Assembly: GCA_015178975.1 (NCBI GenBank)
Contig: WHVD01000001.1
Location: forward strand, 2,728,001 to 2,792,000
Origin: Hysterangium stoloniferum
Taxonomy: Eukaryota > Basidiomycota > Agaricomycetes > Hysterangiales > Hysterangiaceae
Reading direction: 5' to 3'
DNA length: 64,000 bases
The notes beneath the pieces were generated by a model. The model was not told the DNA's origin. It did not search any database and was given only the letters and a program-made list of their open reading frames with translations. Shown piece after piece: positions 9,604-37,003 of the stretch. How positions within the stretch are numbered: the first letter of the stretch is position 1; the number at the start of each line of letters is the position of its first letter. The position numbers were made by a program, and so were the translations under genes.

Positions 9604-10422
9604 TGTTAGGATACACACACAGGCCGGGTTTCCGGAGAAACCCGCGGGATATCCGGTAGGACTTGGCTTCAGCTTATAGGCTGTGCCCTCGCTAGATCGT
9701 GTTGTCCAATTTCAGACAGGCGGACGGGAATCCCGGGGAGTCCGGGCGGGGGTTCGTGGGTCGTAGGTCATAGGTCGTGAGACGTGAGTCGAGAGTCGAG
9801 ATGGTCGAGAGGGTTTAGATGCGTCGGAGCCCGTGGGCTCCGACTAGTGCGAGCGGTCTGATAAGAGTAGGTTTTAGAGAGGAAAATGTATTAGATTACT
9901 GGGGGGAATCTAAACTAATTTTCTGACTGGATTGTATGTACAACATCTGCCAGTTTATATAGACCGTGGAATGCATGACATACCGAATCCAGTAATAATG
10001 AGATGGAACGAGCAAAACATAAAACAGGAATAGTAAACACCAAATTGGTGTTAGGAACGGGACGGAACGGAGCGGAGTCCGAATCGTGACAAAGCATAAC
10101 CCATAACGGGAAACGGGGCGGGAGCGGAGTCCTAAATCGTGACAGGTCATTTGACTAAAACGGGAACGGGGCTCGATTAGAGCGGTGACGGGATTCTAAG
10201 CGGGGACCGGTGACTGATGCGTGGGACGAAGACAGACATAGACAGAGACGGGATCCGGGGGAAGTCCGGTGACTGATATGTGTCTTAATGAGGTCGAACG
10301 TAACGAGTCTTGACGTAACGGAGTCCGGGCGGGAAATCCTATAAACAGACGATTGGTACTTGTAGCGCGTGGGGGCGTACAAGTTAGTGCCCGGAGTCCG
10401 GCGGGATTGTCCGGTCATAACA
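9604..10422 (-). mobile_element. Solo LTR of Gypsy B family
   Basis: 819 bp, TGTTA...TAACA ends, closely matching both LTRs of the Gypsy B element (29290-30108 and 36190-37003) along its whole length. No internal region is attached. The 5-bp flanks (atagg / agtta) do not match, so it may derive from recombination between elements rather than within one. It lies inside Helitron copy 3 and is therefore younger than it. Strand is given by comparison with B, whose sense strand is minus. Confidence 0.85.
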
Positions 10423-23746: not shown

Positions 23747-23805
23747 TGTGACAACGTGACATTAGGAATTAGTTGAATTCTGTTCAAACAACGAAATTAT
23801 CATCC

Positions 23806-24911
23806 ACTGCAAATTACCACTCCAAGCCATCTGGACTGAGGGGTACCACTCTCAAACCACATCCTAAATTAAGTTGGAGTGAGATGAATCAACTCCGAGC
23901 AGAGGGGAGATGTTTCTCATTCAAGAATGAGGGTCACGAATCCCACAACTGTCCCTGCAGGAAGTTCATGTCGGCACGAAAAAAAGGGGTAACGGTGTCT
24001 GCTGGATCTGTCCGAGTAAAATGACTTACCAATTTGGAAAGAAAGAAGGAACGGGCAGAGTTACAACTACATATGGCCTCATTCGTGCTTAAGGATGAAG
24101 AGACACAACAGGAGTTCAATAACTTACACGATCAAATTTATGCCACCTGGCTGCAGAGATAGATCACTGAATATTTTGGGCCTGATACTGCCATAGCTGA
24201 GGGTCAAAATCCACTGACACGGTTCGAGGTGTCCTATTCGGTCAAAGACTTCAGGGTGAGAGACAACGTCATCCCTGGGGATCCTCTTCAAATTAGCAAA
24301 ATTATATGTCGGGAACCAGGATTTACTGTTGCTCAAAGCATCGTGAATGACCCTGAATGGTTAGGGAAAAAGCTCACTAATGACTGTGCAGACCATGTTA
24401 CAGTGGCAAGGATTATACAACAGCGTTGTTGTACACATTTTTCGCGACTTGAGTCTATGGCAGCGGGAATGCGACACACAGAACGATTTCAGGTCTCGTT
24501 TGATGTACACATTGGGTATATGAAATTGTGGATCTTTTACAACCCCACTTATATATGGCGATTACGAAACAAGCCCTGTTCAGTGGTGACTGGGAAATTG
24601 CGCAAGTAGTTAGCAATGCTATCCCAATGGCAGGAGGGACTACCCAATGGGAGCCGATAGAGGATGAGGACCCACCGGGAATAGAGGGAAATAGTCCAGT
24701 GCAGTATCTTCTCAAAGGCCTGAAGGAGTACTTTCCACCTGAAGAAGCACTGCAGGAGGGAATTAATCCTGAAGCCCGGTTTAGGGTACATACAGAAGAA
24801 TTGGGACTTCAGATATGGGACGAGACCCACACAGACATACCTCTGTTTATGCCATGGTCAGTGTTCAGGCTGAATGAGAACATGGATGATAAAATAGAGG
24901 CCGTCTACTAG
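23806..24911 (+). pseudogene. Gypsy A gag region (fossil)
   Basis: Open stretches include a zinc-knuckle-like segment near 23890-23960 (RAEGRCF...GHESHNCP), the usual C-terminal nucleocapsid position of gag. Further gag-linker stretches run to about 24910. Broken. Confidence 0.55.
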
Positions 24912-25310
24912 GAGCACATACCTGGTTTTTCTGAAGATATGCCAGCATTTTGAAGGTATTGTCAAGGGGCGATGTGCAATCTTCTGGATCTCCATTTCTG
25001 AGTCTACTATAAGACAAGTGTTTTTAACGATGTAAATGGAGTGGAGCGGCAGCGATTCCGAGTTTCCTTTACTGCACGGTTATATGAGATTCACGATCGT
25101 GAATTACGGAAAAGATATACTGTGATGACTGACCATTTACAACATGAGGGGTGGACCGTACCTGATATATTGACTCGGGAAGTATCCCAGGAGGAGTCAT
25201 CGGAACCCATTGTTTTCACAAATGCTGCCCATGTCACCAGGAGGAAACCATTAGGACCTAGAAGGAGTCAATAAAAAAATGGAGGTATTGAGACAGTCGA
25301 GCATACTTCA

Positions 25311-25784
25311 ATGCAGCCCAAGGATTTTACTCAGTGGCTGCCTAAACCAGTTGTCATTGAAGCATTCATAAATGGACGACCTGTGAAAGCCCTAATTGAT
25401 AGTGGGTCACTCGCAGATTTTATATCCATGATGTTGGTCAATCAGCTAGGAGTTACTAAGAATCCACTGCTCAAACCACTCACTGTGCAATTGGGTGTTC
25501 ACGGGTTGAGATCGAAAATCAATTATTCGGTGACTGCTCAGTTTGTGTACCAGAACATAAATTGTTCACGTTGTTTTGATGTAGCCAATCTCAATCCCTA
25601 TGATTTGATTTTAGGGACTCCATTTATTTTTCAACATAGAGTGATGCTAGGCTTGAATCCTACAAGAGTTAACATTGGGTCTAGCCAGCCACTACCAATG
25701 GAAGGAGACACCGTCGAGACACTGCGGTCCGCCATTGCTGAAGTTTTCGAAGATGAGCTTGACGGTTTAAAGGCCGAATTGTGA
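25311..25784 (+). pseudogene. Gypsy A aspartic protease domain (fossil)
   Basis: Retroviral-type aspartic protease with the active-site motif ALIDSGSLADF about 25 residues in, and LILGTPF near the end of the fold. It is followed closely by the reverse transcriptase. Part of a broken element. Confidence 0.75.
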
Positions 25785-25793
25785 GCTGAAGCA

Positions 25794-27323
25794 GTGGACT
25801 TAGACCCAGACACTGCACTGACGGGGCTGCCTCCACTACAGGCAGTGAATCATACCATTCCAATAATTGACGAGGGTAAAATCTATTCATGGTGGCCTTC
25901 TAAGTGTCCAGAAGCAATGAAGGCTCTATGGCAGGAAAAGAAAACAGCATACCTGAGGAATGGAAGATGGCAGGTAGCCACGGGTACAAACACATGTCCT
26001 ATGCTCATCATTCCTAAACCTCCAAAAGCTGATGGAAAGCTGCAGATTCGCATGGTAGTGGATAAACGTGAGCAGAATGCTAACACGTATAAGCTGGCTA
26101 CACCCTTGCCGGATATTGAAGCCATTCTAAGGAACATTGTGCGGCATAAGTATCGGAGTCTAATAGATGGAAAGGATGCATACAAGCAGATTCGAGTCGT
26201 GCCAGAGCATGTCCATTGGACATTGTTTACCTCTCCAGATGGCACTATGGAAAGCTTAACCTTACAGATTGGTGATTGCAATGGGCCATCCACATACCAG
26301 ACGTTGATGAACCACCTATTTGCTCCTTACATTGGCGTTTTCATGGATGTCTATCTGGATGCTATAGTTGTATATTCAGATTCCATTGGCGATCATGTGA
26401 AGCATTTACATACCGTGTTTAAGGTGCTCCGTCAAGAGAAGCTATACCTGGCTGTCAATAAAATGCACTTATTTGCTCCCGAATTGTGAGTTCTAGGACA
26501 TGTGGTCAACGATAAAGGGATAAAAATGGACCCCCATAAGGTGGACTCAGTCACGAACTGGAAAATTCTGACGAACAAGTTACTGTTGGCTGGGTTTTTG
26601 GGGGCAGTAGGATACCTTGCGAACAACTGTGAAGGGGTAAGAATCCCGATGGCCATCCTGGCCAATCAGACAGGGGTAAACAGGCCATGGAGGTGGGGCG
26701 CAACTGAGCAATGTGCCTTTGAAGACATTAAGCGGATTGTTCAGTCTCATCGTGACAAGTATTGCATTGCATTAGATTACTCACCAGGCCATTCCACTAT
26801 TAATTTGGTAACTGACACTTCCTTAACGGGAGTGAGTGGCATCCTCAGCCAAGGGGAAGACTTTCAAAAAGTGGCTGTGGTGTCCTTTTGGTCTGGGAAA
26901 TTCAACTCAGCTCAACAGAACTATTCTGTGCATGAACAGGAGCTCCTAGCCATTGTGGAATCATTGAAACGGTTTCTGCCACAGCTGTTGGGGGTAAAAT
27001 TTCGGATTTGTACCGACCATAAGGGCATAGAATATATACTTACACAAAGAAGCTTGTCCCCAAGGCAGACAAGGTGGCTGGACCTGCTCAATGAATTTGA
27101 TTTCGAGATCCAGTATATCCCTGCCCAGGTGAATACTTTTGCTGATGCGCTGTCCCGCATTTACAGTGATGAACCACTTGGAACTGTTTGGGTGGAAACA
27201 GAATATGTAGGTGAGACCCCTGAGGTGGACAAGGAGGAGAGAGGAGTACCTTACAGGCCACAAGGAGGCTGCCTCAACAGCATGCCAACACCACTGTATA
27301 CAGGGTTAGCAGCAGCGGTGTAA
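25794..27323 (+). pseudogene. Gypsy A reverse transcriptase and RNase H (fossil)
   Basis: Reverse transcriptase fingers and palm run over about 25794-26489 (RMVVDKREQN, DGKDAYKQI, GPSTYQTLMN, then the palm motif near 26350-26380). The connection and RNase H follow over 26502-27323 (LVTDTSLTGVSGILSQ, VHEQELLAIVESLKRF, TDHKGIEYI). Order matches Ty3/Gypsy pol. Broken. Confidence 0.85.
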
Positions 27324-27526
27324 ACAGATGCAACCAGACGGTCCAGCAGGCTGGCCACACACTCACGCCCATCATATGCAACACTTGCAGGGTTGAAGAT
27401 GCAGAGCAAGAGACATAAGGGACAACCGGGAAAAGGGGTGGCCAATGCAGATACAGAATGGGGCACAGCCTCTAGTTTGCAAGAACTGGGCCTGATCAGT
27501 CAGGCAACAATAGTCGTCAGGATGAC

Positions 27527-28012
27527 ATGGAATACACCTCACAATTGGAAATGGAGGGCGAGTTACTGGGGATTGAGACAAACACACGTTCTGAGTTTCC
27601 GCTAGCGAGGATAATCTCAGAGGGTCACCCAGGCATCCACATCCCAGATGCCCTTCAACAACAGTATGGATCGGATGACTTCTTCATGAAGATATGGGCA
27701 GCACCCCTGGAGTATAAGGGGTTTACATTACAGGAGGGCCTCTTCTTTCTGAAGTTAGAGAAGGTCAACTTACTGTGTATCCCGGATAATATGGTAGGCA
27801 ATCGACAAGTGCAGGAAATAATTATCTCGCACGCTTATTCGATCCTGGCACACTTAGGGGCAAGGAAAACTGCCACATACCTACAATCTAATGTATGGTG
27901 GCCATCTTTAACCAAGGATGTTGAGTTGTTTTGCAGGTCTTGCAGTGTGTGCACGACGTTGAAATCAGATACTCAGAAGCCGCAGGGACATCTTCGATCA
28001 TTGGAGGTGCCC
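27527..28012 (+). pseudogene. Gypsy A integrase zinc-binding region (fossil)
   Basis: Shows the integrase HHCC-type motif: SHAYSILAHLGARKT, then WWPSLTKDVELFCRSCSVC. It is cut on the right by a solo LTR inserted at 28013. Confidence 0.75.
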
Positions 28013-28732
28013 TGTTACGACCGTGTCGCAACCCTATCGGCCCCGAGGTTATCACCACTTGTCAACGTTTCAAGTCATCCTCTCGGAAACCATCGGCCCC
28101 GAAGCTGACGAATGTTTCGTGAAGATCAAACTCCATTTACGCCCACGTCAAATAACTCGTATTGTCTGGTCAAACTTTGATACGTCCCCTTTATTATGTT
28201 GATCCGTTCAATCTTATGTTTCGCATATGTCTATCTATATTTGTAGTCCTCGAACCATTTCCTTTTACCGTAATCCCGCTCTCGGTTATCATCGGCCTCC
28301 GAACTAATCATAAACTTCCCGTTCCTAGTCAAGCTTATTGTTAATACCGTGTTCCGCCCTTCTCCCCATTGGTATTTTCCAGACGCCTGTTACTTGTATA
28401 TGAACCCGCTGTAATTGTAGTTACTAGGCAATCAGAATATCAACTCAGAATACCCTCATACACCTGTATCAGTCTCATACTAAGAATCCCCCCATCTGCC
28501 TTCGCGTGCGCTCGCCCACTCCCGGCACCGACCCCTTGGCCCGACGCTCGACTTGTCCTTCGATTCCGATCGGTATCACGCTGAAAGGTACTCACTAGGA
28601 TTAGTCTTCGCCCGCCCGAAATTTAAGGACATCCTACGGATATTTGCGAGGGTGCAGCACATAAGCTGAAGCCAAGTCCTTCCGATCGGTCCCTGTCGGC
28701 CACCGATATTAGTCAGTTTCTAGTTCTTAACA
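28013..28732 (+). mobile_element. Solo LTR, 720 bp, inside Gypsy A integrase
   Basis: TGTTACGA...TTAACA ends, flanked by a perfect 5-bp target duplication TGCCC (28008-28012 and 28733-28737). The sequence near 28650-28680 (gcgagggtgcag...ataagctgaagccaagtcct) resembles, in reverse complement, the Gypsy B LTR, so it belongs to a related Gypsy family inserted on the plus strand. Its internal region has been lost by LTR-LTR recombination. Confidence 0.88.
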
Positions 28733-28737
28733 TGCCC

Positions 28738-29289
28738 TCACAACCATGGGAGGCAATTGGAGTCGACTTTGTGGGACCATTACCACTGTCCAAGAACCGC
28801 CTTGGGGAGTTTGATAACATCTGTGTCATTATTGACCATTTGCATGGTTCACTTAGTTCCAGCATGGGGCAATTATACTGCTACGCAAATGGCTGAAGTA
28901 ATATTCGAGCATGTTTACAAGCTGCATGGCCTGCCGCTCAAGATAATCAGCGATCAAGACTCACTATTTACGAGCTTGTTCTGGAGAGACCTTCACCGGT
29001 TAATAGGGGTTGAATTGAGGATGTCTTCAGCATACCATCCTCAAACAGATGGAGTGACTGAGCGAGCAAATAGGACGATGACGCAGATGCTGAGGCAGTG
29101 TATAGTGCCAAACCAGAAGGATTGGGTGTCAAAACTGCCTGCGATCGAGTTTGCTATAAATAACGCTACCTCTGAACTGACCGGGTTCTTGCCATTCTTC
29201 TTGAATTATTGCCAGATGCCACCGCCATTGATCTGGGAAAGCAACACACAATATCCCAGCGTTCTTGCCTTTGCAGAACGCATGAAGCT
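28738..29289 (+). pseudogene. Gypsy A integrase catalytic core (fossil)
   Basis: Integrase core with IISDQDSLFTSLFW, SSAYHPQTDGVTERANRTM and FAINNATSELTG, the standard D...D...E region of Gypsy integrase. It is interrupted on the right by Gypsy B at 29290. Confidence 0.8.
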
Positions 29290-30108
29290 TGTTAGGATAC
29301 ACACACAGGCCGGGTTTCCAGAGAAACCCGCAGGATATCCGGTAGGACTTGGCTTCAGCTTATAGGCTGCGCCCTCGCTAGATCGTGTTGTCCAATTTCA
29401 GACAGGCGGACGGGAGTCCCGGGGAGTCCGGGTGGGGGTTCGTGGGTCGTGAGTCGTAGGTCATGAGTTGTGAGTTGTGAGTTGAGATGGTCGAGAGAGT
29501 TTAGATGCGTCGGAGCCCGTGGGCTCCGACTAGTGTGAGCGGTCTGATAAGAGTAGGGTTTAGAGAGGAAAATGTATTAGATTACTGGGGGGAATCTAAG
29601 CTAATTTTCTTACTGGATTGTATGTACAACATCTGCCAGTTTATATAGACCATGGAATGCATGACATACCGAATCCAGTAATAATGAGACGAAACGAGCA
29701 AAACATAAAATGGGAATAGTAAACACCAAATTTGTGTTAGGAACGGGACGGAACGGAGCGGAGTCCAAATCGTGACAAAGCATAACCCATAACAGGAAAC
29801 GGAGCGGGAGCGGAGTCCTAAATCGTGACAGGTCATTTGACTAAAACGGGAACGGGGCTCGATTAGAGCAGTGACGGGATTCTAAGCGGGGACCGGTGAC
29901 TGATGCGTGGGACGAAGACGGACATAGACAGAGATGGGGTCCGGGGGAAGTCCGGTGACTGATATGTGTCTTAATGAGGTCGAACGTAACGAGTCTTGAC
30001 GTGAAGGAGTCCGGGCGGGAAATCCTATAAACAGACGATTGGTGCTTGTAGCGCGTGGGGGCGTATGAGTTAGTGCCCGGAGTCCGGCGGGATTGTCCGG
30101 TCGTAACA
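29290..30108 (-). repeat. Gypsy B 3' LTR (left)
   Basis: 819 bp, same family as 36190-37003 and the solo LTR at 9604-10422. TG...CA ends with TGTTA/TAACA inverted termini. Confidence 0.9.
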
Positions 30109-30122
30109 GTATCCTCCCTTTA
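30109..30122 (-). promoter_or_regulatory. Polypurine tract of Gypsy B
   Basis: Minus strand reads aaagggaggatac directly before the 3' LTR, the expected plus-strand primer position for a retroelement. Confidence 0.6.
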
Positions 30123-30318
30123 TGCCGAAGTCCCAAAGAGGCTCTAGACTTCGATAAGGTTCTTGTCGGCTACGCACATGTGTCAAAAGTCATGTCAGTT
30201 ACACATATGTGTCAAAGAGTCATGTGATCTGGAAGGTAAGGTTCAAACGCGACGAGCCTAGATAAAAATTTGAAAAAATAGAAATTTCTTCTTCTTCATT
30301 ACCCCCATCTTCGTCACC

Positions 30319-31238
30319 ATGGGACCAAAACCAACACCATGCAAGCCAATGCCGACAGCAGGGCCCTCCACGGGCACTCCGTATCGGGCGCCGTGGAGTG
30401 CGGCCCAATTGTTGGTGTGGCGAGAAGAGCAACGCCAACTGCGTGAAGTAGCAGAGAAAGAGGCGAGGGAGGCTGAGGAGGCCCTGGACAGAGAGTACCA
30501 GAAAGTGTTGGCCACGGAGGAAGAGGCCACAAAGGAGAGGGAACGTGAGGTGGACGAGGCTGCGCGAGTGGCCGCAGAGAACGCCCAGGTGGCTGCAGAG
30601 AAAGCCCGGGTGGCCATGGAGAGGGCCGCCATTGTTGCGGGAAAGGTAAGTCCCAGGTTCCAACTTGTCAAAAACTCTTTACTGACTTGTAATTTTCAGC
30701 GCAAAGTGACAGAGGTGGAGTCCGAGTCCGAGGGGGAGCCGGAGAGCCCCCAAAAGGTAGGCCTCATGTCCGTGGGATAACCGGTGAAAACTGACCATAT
30801 CAACAGAAGGCAAGGAAGGCGGCGCCAGTCCGACTACCGACGCGGAACGAGCCGCGGTGTTCCAGTTGTAATGACCGGAACACAGAGTGCAATCGAAAGT
30901 CCGGCCGGGGTCCGGGGTGTTACCAATGCACGCACCTCAAGGCGAGGTGCTCGCTTGTGCACGAGCAGGCCACGGGATCCGGGGCGCGAGACATAAGTGG
31001 GACGGATGTGTTGTCCGGGTTGGATGAAGTCCTTGGATGGATCGCCGAGGGCATCGAGGCCCAAAACGAGTTGCTCCGGAAGAGCAACAAGGTCCAAATT
31101 GTGGTGGCAAAGGAGCTGTCCGGACTCCGCGAGGAGTTTTGGAAGTTCCTGGCAGAGTATGGTGGCTATGTCTATAAAGAGCTGGATCGGATGAGGACGG
31201 GGTTGCCGCGGAGGTCGCGGAGCTCCCAGAGGAGATAG
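30319..31238 (+). CDS. Antisense three-exon gene inside Gypsy B, coiled coil and Zn2Cys6-type pattern
   Basis: Exons 30319-30645, 30700-30756 and 30807-31238; 816 nt, 271 aa, ATG to TAG, all in phase 0. Introns are 54 and 50 bp, GTAAGT...TTTCAG and GTAGGC...AACAG, each with an actgac branch site. Residues 30-105 are Glu/Ala/Arg-rich and predicted coiled coil. An acidic Ser/Glu stretch follows. Near residues 145-170 lies C-x2-C-x6-C-x9-C-x2-C-x6-C (CSSC, then C, then CYQC, then C), the spacing of fungal binuclear zinc clusters. A helical C-terminus with WIAEGIEAQNELL follows. It runs opposite to pol, between the chromodomain end and the 3' LTR. Function unknown: DNA-binding regulator, captured host gene or accessory protein are all possible. 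Confidence 0.65.
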
Positions 31239-31484
31239 CTGAGGAAGCAGGGAAAAAGCATAGTCCCATAAATGTAGACTGAAAATTAACATAGAAATAA
31301 AAGTAATTGAACATAAAAAAAAGCGTGAAAAACATAAAAAATAAGAGTCAAAGCCAAAGTCCACGGAGAGTCTGCTTAAAGACTTGACAAGACATGTCAG
31401 AACCTGTAACAGCAAAGAGAGACATAGGGCGACAGGGAATAGTGAAAATGAGTCCAAACGTAACACGGGGTCCACGGAGTGTGG

Positions 31485-32663
31485 TCAGACAGACGATAAT
31501 GGTCCAGGTTTGAGTGGGTAAGCTGTATGAAAGTCAGTAACGATTTCTGTAGCATTACCGAGTTCCGTGGCCAAAATCCATGAGGTTTCTTCATCAGTGC
31601 CCTCGTAACCCGCCCACTTGACCAAGTAAAGCAGTTTACAAGTGCGTCGACGCTTGTCAATTTTTGAATCTAAAATCTGCGAGATTTCAAACTCGGGTTC
31701 TCCATCAATGACGACAGGAGGAGGCGGAGATTGCACGCGATCCGGGATAGTGTTAGCAGTACAAGGTTCTAGCATAGAGACGTGAAATACCGGGTGTACC
31801 ACGCGCATGCTATCCAGAAGCCGTAGAGTCCAAGAAACTGAACCTACTTGTGCAATAATTTCAAAAGGACCTAAATATTTTTCAGCAAGCTTCTTTGACG
31901 GATGGGTAGTCCTAAAGAATTGAGCTTTGACATAAACACGGTCGCCAATCTTGAAGTTGGATGGCAGGATCCGGTGTTTGTCCGCTGAATGTTGGTATTG
32001 CTCTTGGGCGGACAATATTGCAGTCCGGAGTTCCTCGTGGAGCTCGTGGAGGTCCGTGGTGAACTCTTGAGTGCGAGCAGAGGTGATATTTCGTTCTGGA
32101 TGTACTGTAATATTTGGATTATATCCTTTATTTGCAAAGAACGGGGAAATGCCAGTAGTGGCCGAAGGTGCATTGTTGTAAGCAAACTCTGCAAGTGGTA
32201 ACAAGGATTTCCAATTGTCCTGTTGGTAGTTGCAATATACACGGAGGTATTGTTCCAATGTCTGGTTGACGCGTTCGGTTTGTCCGTCGCCTTCTGGGTG
32301 ATGTCTGGACGTGAAATGTAATGTCATGTCCAAGGATTTTCCGAGGGATCTAAAGAAGTGAGATACGAACTCTGATCCTCTATCGGAAGTCACGTGGGAC
32401 GGAACTCCGTGCTTGGAAAATACGTGGATAATGAAATGTTCCGCTAGCTGCACAGACGTAATTGTATCATAAGTAGGGATGAATATACCTTGTTTTGAGA
32501 ATCTGTCAACAACGACTAGAATGGCGGAAAAGCCTTCGGAATCTGGTAGGTGTTCAATGAAATCCATAGAGATAGAATTCCACGGATGTTCCGGACCGGG
32601 AGGTGTTTCAAAAGGCCGTATGGCTTGTGTCGCTGAGATTTCGAGCGGGGACAAGTAGTGCAA
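31485..32663 (-). pseudogene. Gypsy B integrase core and chromodomain (fossil)
   Basis: Integrase core with VVVDRFSKQ, VTSDRGSEFVSHFF, YHPEGDGQTERVNQTLEQYL-like region and FAYNNAPSATTGISPF, then a GPFEIIAQVG/VFHVSMLEP linker. At the C-terminus is a chromodomain (VKWAGYEGTDEETSW), which places the element in the chromovirus branch of Ty3/Gypsy. Confidence 0.9.
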
Positions 32664-35029
32664 GATTTACAATAGTGCTTAATGAATCCACGGAGTCCAG
32701 GCCAAGTATATTCTCTTCTTATTAATGATAGAATTTTGTTGTACCCGAAATGTCCTGAGAGTGGATGATCATGTTTGTATTGAAGGATCCTGAGGCGGAG
32801 GCCGTCGGAATCCGGTACATAGATGCGATCGTCAAGTCTAATGAAACCATGTTGATCAAGAGACCACCGAGGTTGATCGGGGCCCACGGGATTGTCTAGA
32901 TGAGCTTTAGTAATTGGGTCTAGGGGAATTGCCGATAGAATATCTTGATGTAACTTCTCAATATCCATAATGATAATTCCACGGACAATGGGATTGATGA
33001 GGAAAGTTGCGCGGACCGATGCAGTAAGTTGTTGATTCATGAAAATAGGTTTCAGGTTGTGCAGATTTACCGTTGCATAGTCATTGCTCCCCTCTTTAGG
33101 ATAGACGTCCCATCGTCTAGTTAAAGCGTCAGGTTTGCCGCTGAGACGGCCGGGTCGAAAACAGATAATCATGTTGAAGGCAGATAGATATTCAGACCAG
33201 TGGGCCTGCCGACGGGTCAAACGTTTTGTGGTAGAAAAGTATTCCAGGTTTTTGTGATCTGTTACAACGTCAATAGGAGCTCCTGAACCTTCCAAATAGT
33301 GTCGCCACGCTTTGAAAGCTGAAAAGATTGCCAGAAGTTCTTTATCATGAACGTCGTAGTTGAGCTCTGCTCCGGTAAAAGTCCGGGACAGAAAAGCCAC
33401 GGAGTGGACTTCTCCGTCAGAGTCCTGGATAGACAGAATGGCTCCAAGTGCATAATCCGAGGCGTCTGTTTCAACAATGAGTGGGAAGTCCGGTTTCCAA
33501 TGCGACAGAATAGGAGCTGTGGAAAAAGAATTTTTTAAAAGATTGAAAGCTTTTTGACACTTATTGTTAAAATTCCACGGAGTACCTTTACGCGTAAAAT
33601 GGGTAAGGGGTACCGTGATGTCGGAATATCCACGGATAAAATGTCTGTAAAAATTGGCAAAGCCGAGAAAGGATTGTATATCTTTAACTTTTCGGGGTTC
33701 AGGCCAATCTTTGATGACTTGCACTTTAGTTTCATCCATGCGGAGTCCATCAGGTCCCATCATGAAACCTAGGTATTCCACGGAGTCCGTGTCAAAAGTA
33801 CATTTTTTACCATTTGTGAATAAACCATGTTGTCTGAGTCTCCGGAGAACTTCATGGACTTGTTTGTCGTGTTCCGCAGGATTCTCGGAGTAGATAGGAA
33901 TGTCGTCCAAGTAAACAATGACGCATACATCGAGCATGTCGGAGAAAATGTCGTTGATAAAACGCTGAAAAACAGAAGGAGCATTGGTGAGACCAAAAGG
34001 GATCACCAACCACTGTCCTAGGGGTGGCTGGGCACCATCTTCAAGATCGATTTTTAAGTCGTATTCTCTGTGAGGCGGAAGCCGGTCAGCTTTTCGCTTG
34101 CTAAAAACATCCGCAAAGTCATGATATTTCTCCAGGACGCCTTCTAGGTCAGTGGCTTGCTCAGATTTGGATGCTGGGGTTGAAAAACGTCCAGTTGCTT
34201 CATCAATTTTTAAGTTGATAGTGAACGCCTGGGACCCATCCATTTTTGAAGCCCTAATAAAAGCTGCAGCATTAATCAGAGAAATGGACGGAGGTGCCGT
34301 GGGTTCCGGGGAAGCTGTAGGTGCCGTAGGGATCACAGGGGTTCTCGAGACTGCAGGTGCCAGGAAGGCCATGGGTGCTGTGGAGGCCGAGACAGGCGCA
34401 GTTTCCTCGGCTGCCACGGGGGTTCGGAATGTTATACTGTTAGCTATCCAGTCAATCAACGGATTGTAGCGGGTAAGCCAGTTATGTCCTAGAACCACCG
34501 AGCAACTTGAGTCTAACTGGGTCACATAGAAAGTGACCAATTGAGATGTTCCACAAGGGAAACTGATGGGTAAATTACAAGCTTGGGTAACAACCCAATT
34601 ACTTGTGCCATCGAAGAGGCGGAGACCGATGGGATTTATCGAATAAGTTGACAAAGAATTTTTTTGTGTGAATTTTGTATCTAAAAAACAATGAGTCGAG
34701 CCGGAATCTATGAGAGCTGAAAAAACGAAGTTCGGGATCATATTAGACATAAGTTTAACGAAAAATGAATCAGAATGTGAAAGAGCGGATGCGTTGAGGC
34801 AAGTAAACTCTTGAATGCGTGGAGAGGCAACGCAACCCCCAACCCGCGCAGAGTCCGCGGGGTTGCTTACTCTTTTTTCGAGTCGGCAGCCGGGTTGTCC
34901 TTTCATGGGGTTTCCGTGGAGGCCTTGGCTGTTCATCCCTTTGAAGAGTTTGCTTTTGCCAGCGGACATTCCGGGACTCGATGACCGGGTTTCCCGCAAA
35001 ATAGACAGAGGTTGTTGTCCATATGACAT
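32516..35029 (-). pseudogene. Gypsy B protease, reverse transcriptase, RNase H and integrase zinc finger (fossil)
   Basis: In order: aspartic protease (FSALIDSGSTHCFLDTKF), reverse transcriptase palm with VIVYLDDIPIYS, RNase H (VETDASDYALGAILS, VHDKELLAIFSAF, TDHKNLEYF), and integrase HHCC finger (HPLSGHFGYNK, CKSCTTCPRSK). It overlaps the integrase core region in another frame. Broken; layout typical of chromoviruses. Confidence 0.9.
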
Positions 35030-36153
35030 TGTCTTTCTTGTGGGGTTAATTTGCCATCGGGTCCGAGTTTGCCTGAGAGGTCAGGTTTGCCGGCTTGCTT
35101 GCCGGACTGTTGACCCTTGTTGTTGTCCTTATTGTCCTTATTGTCCTTGTTGTTGTTTGAAGACTTTTTGTCGTTCTTCTTGTCGGATTGAGTGGAGTTG
35201 CTGGTTGACGAGTTGTTGTTGTTTTTATTGGCCGTGGATTTGTTTACTTTATCCGCGGAGGTCTCGCGGGCAACTTCCGTGCGACGTTCCCAATAACGTG
35301 CGTCCGTGTTTTGAGCCTTGAGGCGCATACAGGACAGGGTTTTTGGCTTGCCATCTTCTCCTTTTGAGACTTCGTCTTTAAGGCGGGATGGCAGACCGGC
35401 GTAGAATTGGTGGTGGAGAGCGGGATCGCCCCACTGACAACGAGCTGCAAGATTATTGAATTGGACGATGTAGTCCGTGATGCACTGTGTGTCCTTCATA
35501 CAAAGATTTGTGAGACTATTCTTGGCTTCTCCTGTCGGGTCATACGGGCCAAAGTTGGTTTCAAGCTCCTCAACAAAAGCTTCCCAATTTTCAAGCCAAA
35601 GCGGCTCTTCCTCGGTAATCCCACTAAAAGCTGGTTTGAACCATTTCAACATGGATCCCGACAAATATGAAAGTGCGTAGTTGACTTTTCAGGAGTCCAT
35701 GGAGAATGCAGCGGCACGATCGTGGAAATTGAAGCGACATTGCATGAGGAAAGTGGAGAGTTTGTTTGGGTTGGAACCCGTGAAGGGTTCCGGAGCATTG
35801 ACTTTTGACCGTGGAGGTTCTTGTTCCTTTCTTTTTCATTCTTCTAGCAGGTGCGTCATAAATTTATCTATAGTACCTGCTAAAAACTCAGAAGTAGGAT
35901 CCCTCGTATGCGGTCGTTCGAGAGGCGGAGGATTTTCGAGAGGGTTTTCGACACCTTTGCCCTTGTCGGGGGCCACGGATTCTTCCTCGTGCTCGAGTTC
36001 ATCCTGGTGTTCCGGGATTTCTTCGATACTGGCTTCTTCCATGGGTTCCGACTGGTTCGCAAGCGTCTGACTGGTATACAGAGTTAACGGGGAATGAAGA
36101 GTTGACGGTCCAGGTAATGATGACTGTGCGCGTGTACTTCTTCTTAGTGGCAT
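34933..36153 (-). pseudogene. Gypsy B gag (fossil)
   Basis: Gag core over 34933-35664 (LKWFKPAFSG, WLENWEAFVEELETNFGP, RCQWGDPALHHQFYAGLP), then an Asn/Lys-rich linker and one CCHC zinc knuckle (CLFCGKPGHRVPEC) at the C-terminus. The N-terminal region lies to about 36153. Broken. Confidence 0.8.
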
Positions 36154-36189
36154 AATGAAAACAATCTGCGAGTATTAGTCAGAAAATAC

Positions 36190-37003
36190 TGTTCGGATAC
36201 ACACACAGGCCAGGTTTCCGGAGAAACCCGCGGGATATCCGGTAGGACTTGGCTTCAGCTTATAGGCTGCGCCCTCACTAGATCGTGTTGTCCAATTTCA
36301 GACAGGCGGACGGGAGTCCCGGGGAGTCCGGGCGGGGGTTCCTGGGTCGTGAGTCGTAGGTCGTGAGTTGTGAGTTGTGAGTCGAGATGGTCGAGAGAGT
36401 TTAGATGCGTCGGAGCCTGTGCGACGAGTGTGAGTGGTCTGATAAGAGTAGGGTTTAGAGAGGAAAATGTATTAGATTACTGGGGGGAATCTAAGCTAAT
36501 TTTCTGACTGGATTGTATGTACAACATCTGCCAGTTTATATAGACCATGGAATGCATGACATACCAAATCCAGTAATAATGAGACGAAACGAGCAAAACA
36601 TAAAACGGGAATAGTAAACACCAAATTGGTGTTAGGAACGGGACGGAACGGAGCGGAGTCAGAATCGTGACAAAGCATAACCCATAACGGGAAACGGAGC
36701 GGGAGCGGAGTCCTAAATCGTGACAGGTCATTTGACTAAAACGGGAACGGGGCTCGATTAGAGTGGTGACGGGATTCTAAGCGGGGACCGGTGACTGATG
36801 CGTGGGATGAAGATGGACATAGACAGAGACGGGGTCCGGGGGAAGTCCGGTGACTGATATGTGTCTTAATGAGGTCGAACGTAACGAGTCTTGACGTGAC
36901 GGAGTCCGGGCGGGAAATCCTATAAACAGACGATTGCTGCTTGTAGCGCGTGGGGGCGTACGAGTTAGTGCCCGGAGTCCGGCGGGATTGTCCGGTCGTA
37001 ACA
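36190..37003 (-). repeat. Gypsy B 5' LTR (right)
   Basis: 814 bp, paired with 29290-30108 and followed by target duplication AAGCT (37004-37008). Would carry the element's promoter. Confidence 0.9.

What the first reader, a model, noticed from the sequence alone, without database searches (positions are those of the whole stretch)
30319..31238. Intact-looking spliced gene on the opposite strand inside a Gypsy chromovirus, with a Zn2Cys6-type cysteine pattern
Three exons join with all phases zero, two 50-54 bp introns have consensus donors, branch sites and acceptors, and the product has a coiled coil plus C-x2-C-x6-C-x9-C-x2-C-x6-C. It lies between the chromodomain and the 3' LTR, opposite to pol. 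While pol is broken, this frame is whole. An element-borne regulator, an anti-silencing factor, or a captured host gene would all be notable.
Basis: partly seen in the sequence, partly recalled or inferred. Interest (0 to 1): 0.8.

Follow-up and report, generated by a model that had tools for sequence, protein, structure and literature searches.

The report
Spliced antisense gene in fungal retrotransposon
A fungal retrotransposon carries a small, spliced, selected gene on its opposite strand that looks like a zinc-cluster DNA-binding protein, much as some retroviruses carry an antisense regulator gene.

Summary
Exons 30319-30645, 30700-30756 and 30807-31238 join in phase 0, antisense between chromodomain and 3' LTR of a chromovirus (29290-37003, TSD AAGCT). 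It is no chance frame: the genome search scored 40 DNA places and 150 exon-3 places (both caps); 58 of 59 fetched copies have integrase on the opposite strand beside it; splice sites stay while intron lengths drift; pN/pS is 0.26. Variants shared among copies are codon-constrained, private ones nearly neutral, as in integrase. So the gene is selected while the element moves and decays after insertion. "Intact" is only partly right: the window copy is frameshifted near 31180 and lacks the family's acidic tail. A second, far diverged chromovirus family carries a homologue with the same exon plan (profile E 5e-8) and shares a leader block, TGTGTCAAANNNTCATGTGA, found 529 times genome-wide. The six cysteines fit Zn2Cys6 spacing but miss Pfam's cut-off; the halves match the profile in swapped order, clearly in family 1, weakly in family 2. 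Best reading: an old, element-borne, antisense-transcribed nuclear DNA-binding regulator, working like HTLV HBZ or plant aORF-3R proteins. Expression, DNA binding and regulation are inferred, not shown.

The parts
29290..37003 (-). Chromovirus (Ty3/Gypsy with chromodomain) copy, sense strand minus
   Evidence: LTR pair 96.1% identical, 5-bp TSD AAGCT on both sides, gag-pol and chromodomain
29290..30108 (-). 3' LTR (819 bp, TGTTA...TAACA)
36190..37003 (-). 5' LTR (814 bp)
29642..29647 (-). TATA-like box for sense (gag-pol) transcription in the LTR; being near-palindromic it also matches on plus
   Evidence: pattern scan and LTR alignment, 10 of 10 covering rows, one of them the window copy again; promoter function inferred
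30026..30031 (+). TATA-like box for antisense transcription, about 290 bp upstream of the aORF ATG
   Evidence: pattern scan and LTR alignment, 10 of 10 covering rows, one of them the window copy again; promoter function inferred
30109..30142 (.). Block next to the 3' LTR holding the presumed polypurine tract (minus strand), also found in the second family
   Evidence: 27 of 34 identical to L069; 0 of 1000 shuffles as good
30208..30227 (+). Conserved leader block TGTGTCAAANNNTCATGTGA, 92-111 bp upstream of the ATG; a degenerate first copy lies at about 30179-30197 (by eye)
   Evidence: 51 of 60 family-1 rows; L069 and L077 of family 2; 529 genome-wide against 0 for the reversed control
30319..30645 (+). 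aORF exon 1: N-terminal region and charged, Ala/Glu/Arg-rich coiled-coil-like stretch
30646..30699 (+). Intron 1 (54 bp)
   Evidence: GTAAGT in 60 of 60 rows, AG acceptor in 60 of 60; length drifts
30700..30756 (+). aORF exon 2: acidic/serine-rich linker between basic clusters (NLS-like by eye)
   Evidence: most conserved exon, mean pairwise difference 0.062
30757..30806 (+). Intron 2 (50 bp)
   Evidence: GT donor in 59 of 60 rows (L023 reads CT), AG acceptor in 60 of 60
30807..31238 (+). aORF exon 3: Cys6 motif, two predicted helices; window copy frameshifted near 31180, so its last residues are not those of the family
30858..30950 (+). C-x2-C-x6-C-x9-C-x2-C-x6-C motif
   Evidence: Pfam halves swapped
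31485..32663 (-). Integrase core, Tf2-1-like SH3 and chromodomain ORF
   Evidence: Pfam
32516..35029 (-). Protease, partial reverse transcriptase, RNase H and integrase zinc-binding ORF (damaged)
   Evidence: Pfam; RVT_1 covered only from profile position 112
34933..35664 (-). gag ORF
   Evidence: Pfam Retrotrans_gag

Best explanation
The finding is a genuine accessory gene of a fungal chromovirus: an antisense, two-intron gene between pol and the 3' LTR. Shown: its copies carry it in the same place, its coding sequence and splice sites were under selection while the element transposed, and a homologue with the same exon plan exists in a second, far diverged chromovirus family. Inferred: it is transcribed from the 3' LTR or leader in the antisense direction, which is also why its introns survive retrotransposition, since the genomic RNA is the other strand and cannot splice them. 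Inferred: the product enters the nucleus, dimerises by coiled coils, binds DNA by a Zn2Cys6-like cluster whose halves are in swapped order, and regulates transcription of the element (LTR or its own leader, for example the conserved TGTGTCAAANNNTCATGTGA block), in the way HBZ acts on the HTLV-1 LTR.
For: DNA copies: 40 scored of 721 candidates; exon 3: 150 scored of 1272. Location: 58 of 59 fetched copies have integrase on the opposite strand, in 46 of the 58 ending 331-363 bp from exon 3. Splice sites 59-60 of 60, while 42 and 40 of 60 rows have intron lengths that differ from the window by a non-multiple of 3. Mean variability by codon position 0.079/0.086/0.189, introns 0.16-0.20. pN/pS 0.26 over 18 full-length copies. 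Non-CpG variants shared by at least 3 of 53 rows fall 22/18/74 on codon positions, singletons 59/58/81 (Fisher p 6e-5); integrase shows 7/4/44 and 48/40/59. Second family with the same intron places and phases; profile match 94.8%, E 5e-8. Leader block shared by both families. Zn_clus similarity of both halves. Divergent TATA-like boxes in the LTR. CGG, the usual zinc-cluster target (recalled), occurs 29 times in the 3' LTR against 19.3 in shuffles, with some regular spacing, but see against.
Against: No RNA reads, so transcription and splicing are unproven. Pfam Zn_clus stays under its cut-off natively (8.3 bits whole protein, 14.0-14.4 excerpts, cut-off 21; 11.8 or no hit in family 2). A CGG-array target in the LTR is not supported: CGG excess is stronger in pol (z 4.7) than in the LTRs (z 3.0-3.5), and CGG is hardly better kept than other CpG (0.813 against 0.789). 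The LTR copies are so alike that conserved TATA boxes say little. The structure prediction of exon 3 failed over the cysteine motif (mean pLDDT 50.8). Constraint on the aORF is weaker than on integrase (shared non-CpG, p 0.05). Of five family-2 loci read, only L077 is open through all exons. Copies were found by the aORF itself, so elements without it were not sampled. The DNA target is unknown.
Confidence: 0.55

Rival explanations
1. The product is a real nuclear accessory protein of the element, but it acts in integration, chromatin targeting or escape from silencing rather than as a transcription regulator of the LTR.
For: All the selection and location evidence fits equally. The LTR target test was inconclusive. 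The review of plant aORF-3R genes leaves their role open and also considers a part in the retrotransposition process and nuclear entry (PMC7264820, parts 1 and 2 of 3 read).
Against: The Cys6 spacing and the conserved block in the gene's own leader point to sequence-specific DNA binding, but neither is proof.
Confidence: 0.27
2. The antisense RNA itself matters (dsRNA or transcriptional interference with gag-pol) and the reading frame is incidental.
For: Antisense to the element; the review lists dsRNA as a possible role of such transcripts.
Against: Codon-position constraint, frame-keeping exons beside length-drifting introns, and a homologous protein in a second family.
Confidence: 0.05
3. 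A host zinc-cluster gene captured recently by this element and carried as a passenger.
For: Intron-containing gene; the host genome has canonical Zn_clus genes (76 matches).
Against: Present in two deeply diverged families with the same intron plan, selected while mobile, halves swapped against three host domains, and 58 of 59 copies lie beside integrase.
Confidence: 0.08
4. A chance open frame or a mis-joined set of exons.
For: None after the copy comparison; the window copy itself is frameshifted at its end.
Against: Splice sites, codon constraint and homology.
Confidence: 0.01

Closest known systems
Antisense additional ORFs between pol and 3' LTR (aORF-3R) of plant Gypsy elements: Grande gene23, RIRE2, Retand TRP28
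   Same: Same place and orientation; carried by most copies of their families; constrained; nuclear or DNA-binding role suspected (PMC7264820, parts 1 and 2 of 3; PMC11963269, abstract and discussion)
   Different: Plant elements, Retand being a non-chromovirus lineage; different domains (TRP28; SMC-like in PvRetro13); here a Cys6 motif, two conserved introns and fungal chromoviruses. No sequence comparison with them was made
brtn of Boty-like chromoviruses (Botrytis cinerea)
   Same: An antisense extra gene in a fungal chromodomain Gypsy element (reference title and citing passages only)
   Different: Ascomycete; I could not read the original paper or compare sequences, so homology to brtn is untested
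HBZ of HTLV-1
   Same: Antisense gene with a promoter in the 3' LTR encoding a factor that acts on the provirus's own LTR (abstract starts); that it is spliced is recalled
   Different: HBZ is a bZIP protein of a retrovirus; no bZIP hit here, no homology claimed
Fungal Zn(2)-Cys(6) binuclear cluster (PF00172)
   Same: Six cysteines with fitting spacing; both halves align to the profile
   Different: Below the curated cut-off and in swapped order

Membership tests
Chromovirus (chromodomain Gypsy element) | LTR pair, TSD, Gypsy-order pol and C-terminal chromodomain | tested here: met
aORF-3R (antisense ORF between pol and 3' LTR) | Location and orientation | tested here: met
   window and 58 of 59 copies for orientation to integrase
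aORF-3R (antisense ORF between pol and 3' LTR) | Present in most copies of the element family | tested here: inconclusive
   Copies were found by the aORF itself, so elements without it were not sampled
aORF-3R (antisense ORF between pol and 3' LTR) | Conserved about as well as other element proteins | tested here: met
   Same pattern as integrase though weaker
Zn(2)-Cys(6) cluster, PF00172 | Six-cysteine spacing | tested here: met
Zn(2)-Cys(6) cluster, PF00172 | Score over the curated cut-off (21 bits) | tested here: not met
   8.3 bits for the whole window protein, 14.0-14.4 for 3 of 3 excerpts, 11.8 and no hit for two family-2 excerpts
Zn(2)-Cys(6) cluster, PF00172 | Canonical order of the two half-clusters | tested here: not met
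   Half-swapped constructs rise to 19.7-21.9 bits in family 1 (one of three passes 21) and from 11.8 to 13.8 and no hit to 11.5 in family 2; three host canonical domains fall from 33.1-45.9 to 22.8-31.2 when swapped
Zn(2)-Cys(6) cluster, PF00172 | Zinc and DNA binding | not testable with these tools
   structure prediction uninformative over the motif
HBZ-type antisense retroviral regulator | Spliced antisense gene near the 3' LTR | tested here: met
   splicing from sequence conservation, not from RNA
HBZ-type antisense retroviral regulator | bZIP domain | tested here: not met
   no bZIP match among Pfam hits
HBZ-type antisense retroviral regulator | Antisense promoter in the 3' LTR | tested here: inconclusive
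   TATA-like box at 30026 in 10 of 10 covering rows, but the LTRs are closely alike
HBZ-type antisense retroviral regulator | Acts on the element's LTR | not testable with these tools
   CGG test unspecific

The most novel reading that the evidence does not exclude
An old lineage of fungal chromoviruses carries an HBZ-like control gene: antisense, spliced, driven from a two-way LTR promoter, and encoding a half-swapped Zn2Cys6 DNA-binding domain, a zinc-cluster form not described in the papers I found. It would have evolved independently of retroviral and plant antisense regulators.
Probability: 0.3. Interest if true: 0.76.

Novelty: new variant of a known kind. Interest (0 to 1): 0.6.

Why it matters
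Antisense accessory genes between pol and the 3' LTR are known from retroviruses, plant Gypsy elements and one fungal element group, but their functions in retrotransposons are unknown. Here the gene is spliced, and the upkeep of its introns argues that it is read from the antisense strand only. It also carries a recognisable type of DNA-binding motif and a shared leader block. That makes the general idea, that retrotransposons encode their own antisense transcription regulators, testable with plain RNA-seq and binding assays. It would also define a swapped form of a major fungal transcription-factor domain, spread by mobile elements in hundreds of copies in this genome.

Tried and rejected
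LTR target of CGG triplets (expected for a zinc-cluster protein, recalled): the 3' LTR has 53.7 CGG+CCG per kb against 16.8 in the rest of the window, and CGG pairs 5 and 10 bp apart exceed shuffles. But pol exceeds shuffles even more (z 4.7 against 3.0-3.5 for the LTRs), one of the other window stretches does too (z 3.1), the family-2 LTR does so weakly (z 1.7), and CGG is hardly better kept than other CpG. In 19 divergent copies the number of such triplets ranges from 3 (window 22) to 25 (window 22) over the aligned LTR end. Not used as support.

Relatives in viral contigs: both families searched, 0 relatives. Solved structures: only chance-level hits for exon 3 and both profiles. Structure prediction of exon 3 alone: mean pLDDT 50.8, cysteine part below 50, so no fold search was run. 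Presence in other fungi could not be tested: of fungal genomes only the window's own is held. The GTDB collection (genome contigs) was not searched.

Other chromodomain elements of the genome: of 9 stretches read downstream of chromodomain hits (L068-L076), 1 (L069) has an antisense Cys6 gene and 8 do not show the motif. Several of the 8 are one type (L070, L071, L072, L075 have nearly the same chromodomain), some may be decayed, and L074 runs into a gag-like ORF.

Literature: 7 searches on the subject and one on HBZ (71). Judged by titles and abstract starts of the listed papers (lists are cut), none is about a zinc-cluster antisense gene in a fungal element; two searches returned no paper. 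PMC2864245 has an additional ORF of unknown function in a figure legend on fungal elements (section 5 read), so an earlier sighting is possible. Passages only: PMC3248453, PMC10799480, PMC8365987, PMC4227169.

A slip mended: one search counted 21 of 53 open aORFs with an end point that is not on a codon border; one search gives 22 of 53.

Full report
What is there. The window is G000:C1:2728001-2792000 of a 111-Mb genome. That the host is a fungus, probably a basidiomycete, is inferred from intron size, element type and host zinc-cluster genes, not from a name. A chromovirus copy lies at 29290-37003 with its sense strand on minus: LTRs 29290-30108 and 36190-37003, 96.1% identical, flanked by the 5-bp repeat AAGCT, with gag, protease, partial RT, RNase H, integrase and chromodomain by Pfam. 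On the plus strand, between chromodomain and 3' LTR, sits the reported gene.

Not chance. A DNA search of the same genome scored 40 copies out of 721 candidates, all at E 1e-312 or better; a search with exon 3 scored 150 out of 1272 candidates. Both are caps, so lower bounds. I fetched 59 further copies: the 39 other places and 20 other places, mostly from its lower half. With the window that makes 60 rows. Intron 1 keeps GTAAGT and an AG acceptor in 60 of 60; intron 2 keeps a GT donor in 59 of 60 (L023 reads CT) and an AG acceptor in 60 of 60. Lengths of the introns differ from the window's by a non-multiple of 3 in 42 and 40 of 60 rows, those of exons 1, 2 and 3 (to 31180) in 11, 2 and 8 of 60. 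Mean pairwise difference is 0.198 and 0.159 in the introns, 0.135, 0.062 and 0.111 in the exons, 0.100 and 0.111 in the two flanks, and 0.079/0.086/0.189 at codon positions 1/2/3; 0 of 2000 within-codon shuffles reached the third-position excess. Among 18 full-length copies pN/pS is 0.26. The flanks are thus about as conserved as the exons, which fits their holding cis elements, and only the introns stand out as free.

Where selection acts. In 53 rows with an integrase segment of at least 900 nt (7 of 60 dropped), variants outside CpG shared by three or more rows fall 22/18/74 on codon positions 1/2/3 in the aORF and 7/4/44 in integrase; singletons fall 59/58/81 and 48/40/59; variants seen twice were left out. 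Shared against single differs with p 6e-5 and 5e-7. With CpG sites included the contrast is weaker but of the same sign (p 0.010 and 0.002). The aORF singletons still lean slightly to third positions (p 0.03). So both genes were constrained while the lineage moved and drift, nearly freely, after insertion. The aORF is somewhat less constrained than integrase (p 0.05). These tests treat columns as independent and the copies are related, so the p values are optimistic. The aORF (to 31178) is open in 22 and the integrase segment in 28 of the 53, so the aORF is not specially preserved in old copies.

The window copy is damaged. Full-length copies encode about 294 aa with an acidic tail ending SPINVD. 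In the window a frameshift near 31180 gives 271 aa and a foreign end; most matches stop there. Copies with at least 280 aa are 23 of 60; none is singled out here.

Same place in other copies. 58 of 59 fetched copies have integrase on the opposite strand, in 46 of the 58 ending 331-363 bp from exon 3; L055 has none within the stretch fetched.

A second family. Of nine stretches read behind other chromodomain hits (L068-L076), one, L069, has an antisense gene of the same plan: coiled-coil-like exon 1 ending in GK, exon 2 starting RK and ending SPK, exon 3 with C-x2-C-x6-C-x10-C-x2-C-x6-C, introns of about 50 bp, phase 0. L077, L078, L079 and L085 show it too. Of these five loci only L077 is open through all three exons; L069 has a stop within exon 3, L078, L079 and L085 are damaged elsewhere. 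The genome search for this type scored 150 of 320 candidates. Single-sequence comparison of the two families is at noise level (25% identity, E 9.5), but profile comparison gives 94.8% and E 5e-8 over 64 columns. The leaders share the block next to the LTR (27 of 34 identical, 0 of 1000 shuffles as good) and TGTGTCAAANNNTCATGTGA (17 of 17 fixed letters; as a free local alignment this is weaker, 3 of 1000 shuffles as good). That pattern occurs 529 times in the genome and its reversed control 0 times; 51 of 60 family-1 rows have it (spacer of 2 to 4 allowed). In family 2 it was seen in L069 and L077 and not in L078 or L079, where the stretch upstream is foreign or not covered. Of two further pattern places that I read, L085 and L086, both stand before such a gene, both damaged; the others of the 529 were not read, except those that belong to copies fetched anyway.

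What the protein looks like. Charged helical N-terminal half and NLS-like basic clusters are by eye. The cysteines fit Zn2Cys6 spacing. Pfam gives Zn_clus only 8.3 bits on the whole protein, with the first half of our motif on the second half of the profile. Excerpts score 14.0-14.4 bits and rise to 19.7-21.9 when the halves are exchanged (3 of 3; one passes the cut-off of 21). For family 2 the change is from 11.8 to 13.8 and from no hit to 11.5; three canonical host domains fall from 33.1-45.9 to 22.8-31.2 when exchanged. The swap is therefore suggested, clearly in family 1 and weakly in family 2. Structure prediction without relatives was uninformative for the motif but gave two C-terminal helices.

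How it probably works. Introns on the antisense strand cannot be spliced out of the sense genomic RNA; their upkeep argues that an antisense mRNA is made and used. A TATA-like box at 30026 (+) and one at 29647-29642 (-) could make the LTR a two-way promoter. The product would be a nuclear DNA-binding regulator of the element. The direct test that I could make, CGG triplets in the LTR, was unspecific. Activator or repressor, LTR or leader as target, all stay open.

Relation to the known. [quoted passage not shown] Retand elements of 122 recent clusters have antisense coding regions in all cases and TRP28 in 97% (PMC11963269, abstract and discussion read). Fungal brtn is known to me only through citing passages. 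HBZ is the retroviral analogue (abstract starts; other facts recalled). So the kind is known; the spliced, zinc-cluster-like fungal form in two chromovirus families was not found in the searches listed under Tried and rejected.

Noticed in passing
L069 (G000:C553:69930-72500), L077, L078, L079, L085: Second, far diverged chromovirus family with the same antisense three-exon gene plan; 150 scored places of 320 candidates.
   Followed up: yes
window 30208-30227; genome-wide: Leader block TGTGTCAAANNNTCATGTGA occurs 529 times exactly, 0 times reversed; in the places read the three spacer letters go with the subfamily.
   Followed up: partly
window 30164-30225: 29-bp tandem repeat (2.1 copies) around the leader block.
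   Followed up: no
L068, L076 and L070, L072, downstream of the chromodomain: Other chromovirus families have a sense-strand extra ORF containing MF.T.SSSK.TL behind the chromodomain and no antisense Cys6 motif in the stretch read.
   Followed up: no
window 9604-10422: Apparent solo LTR of the same family, 95.4% identical to the window 3' LTR.
   Followed up: no
window about 23773-29289: Another Gypsy-like element on the plus strand (ORFs read by eye, no domain scan), apparently the target of the insertion (TSD).
   Followed up: no
G000:C56, C115, C37, C85, C209, C308, C309, C550: Several Zn_clus stretches in one frame or close together; zinc-cluster factors normally have one (recalled).
   Followed up: no
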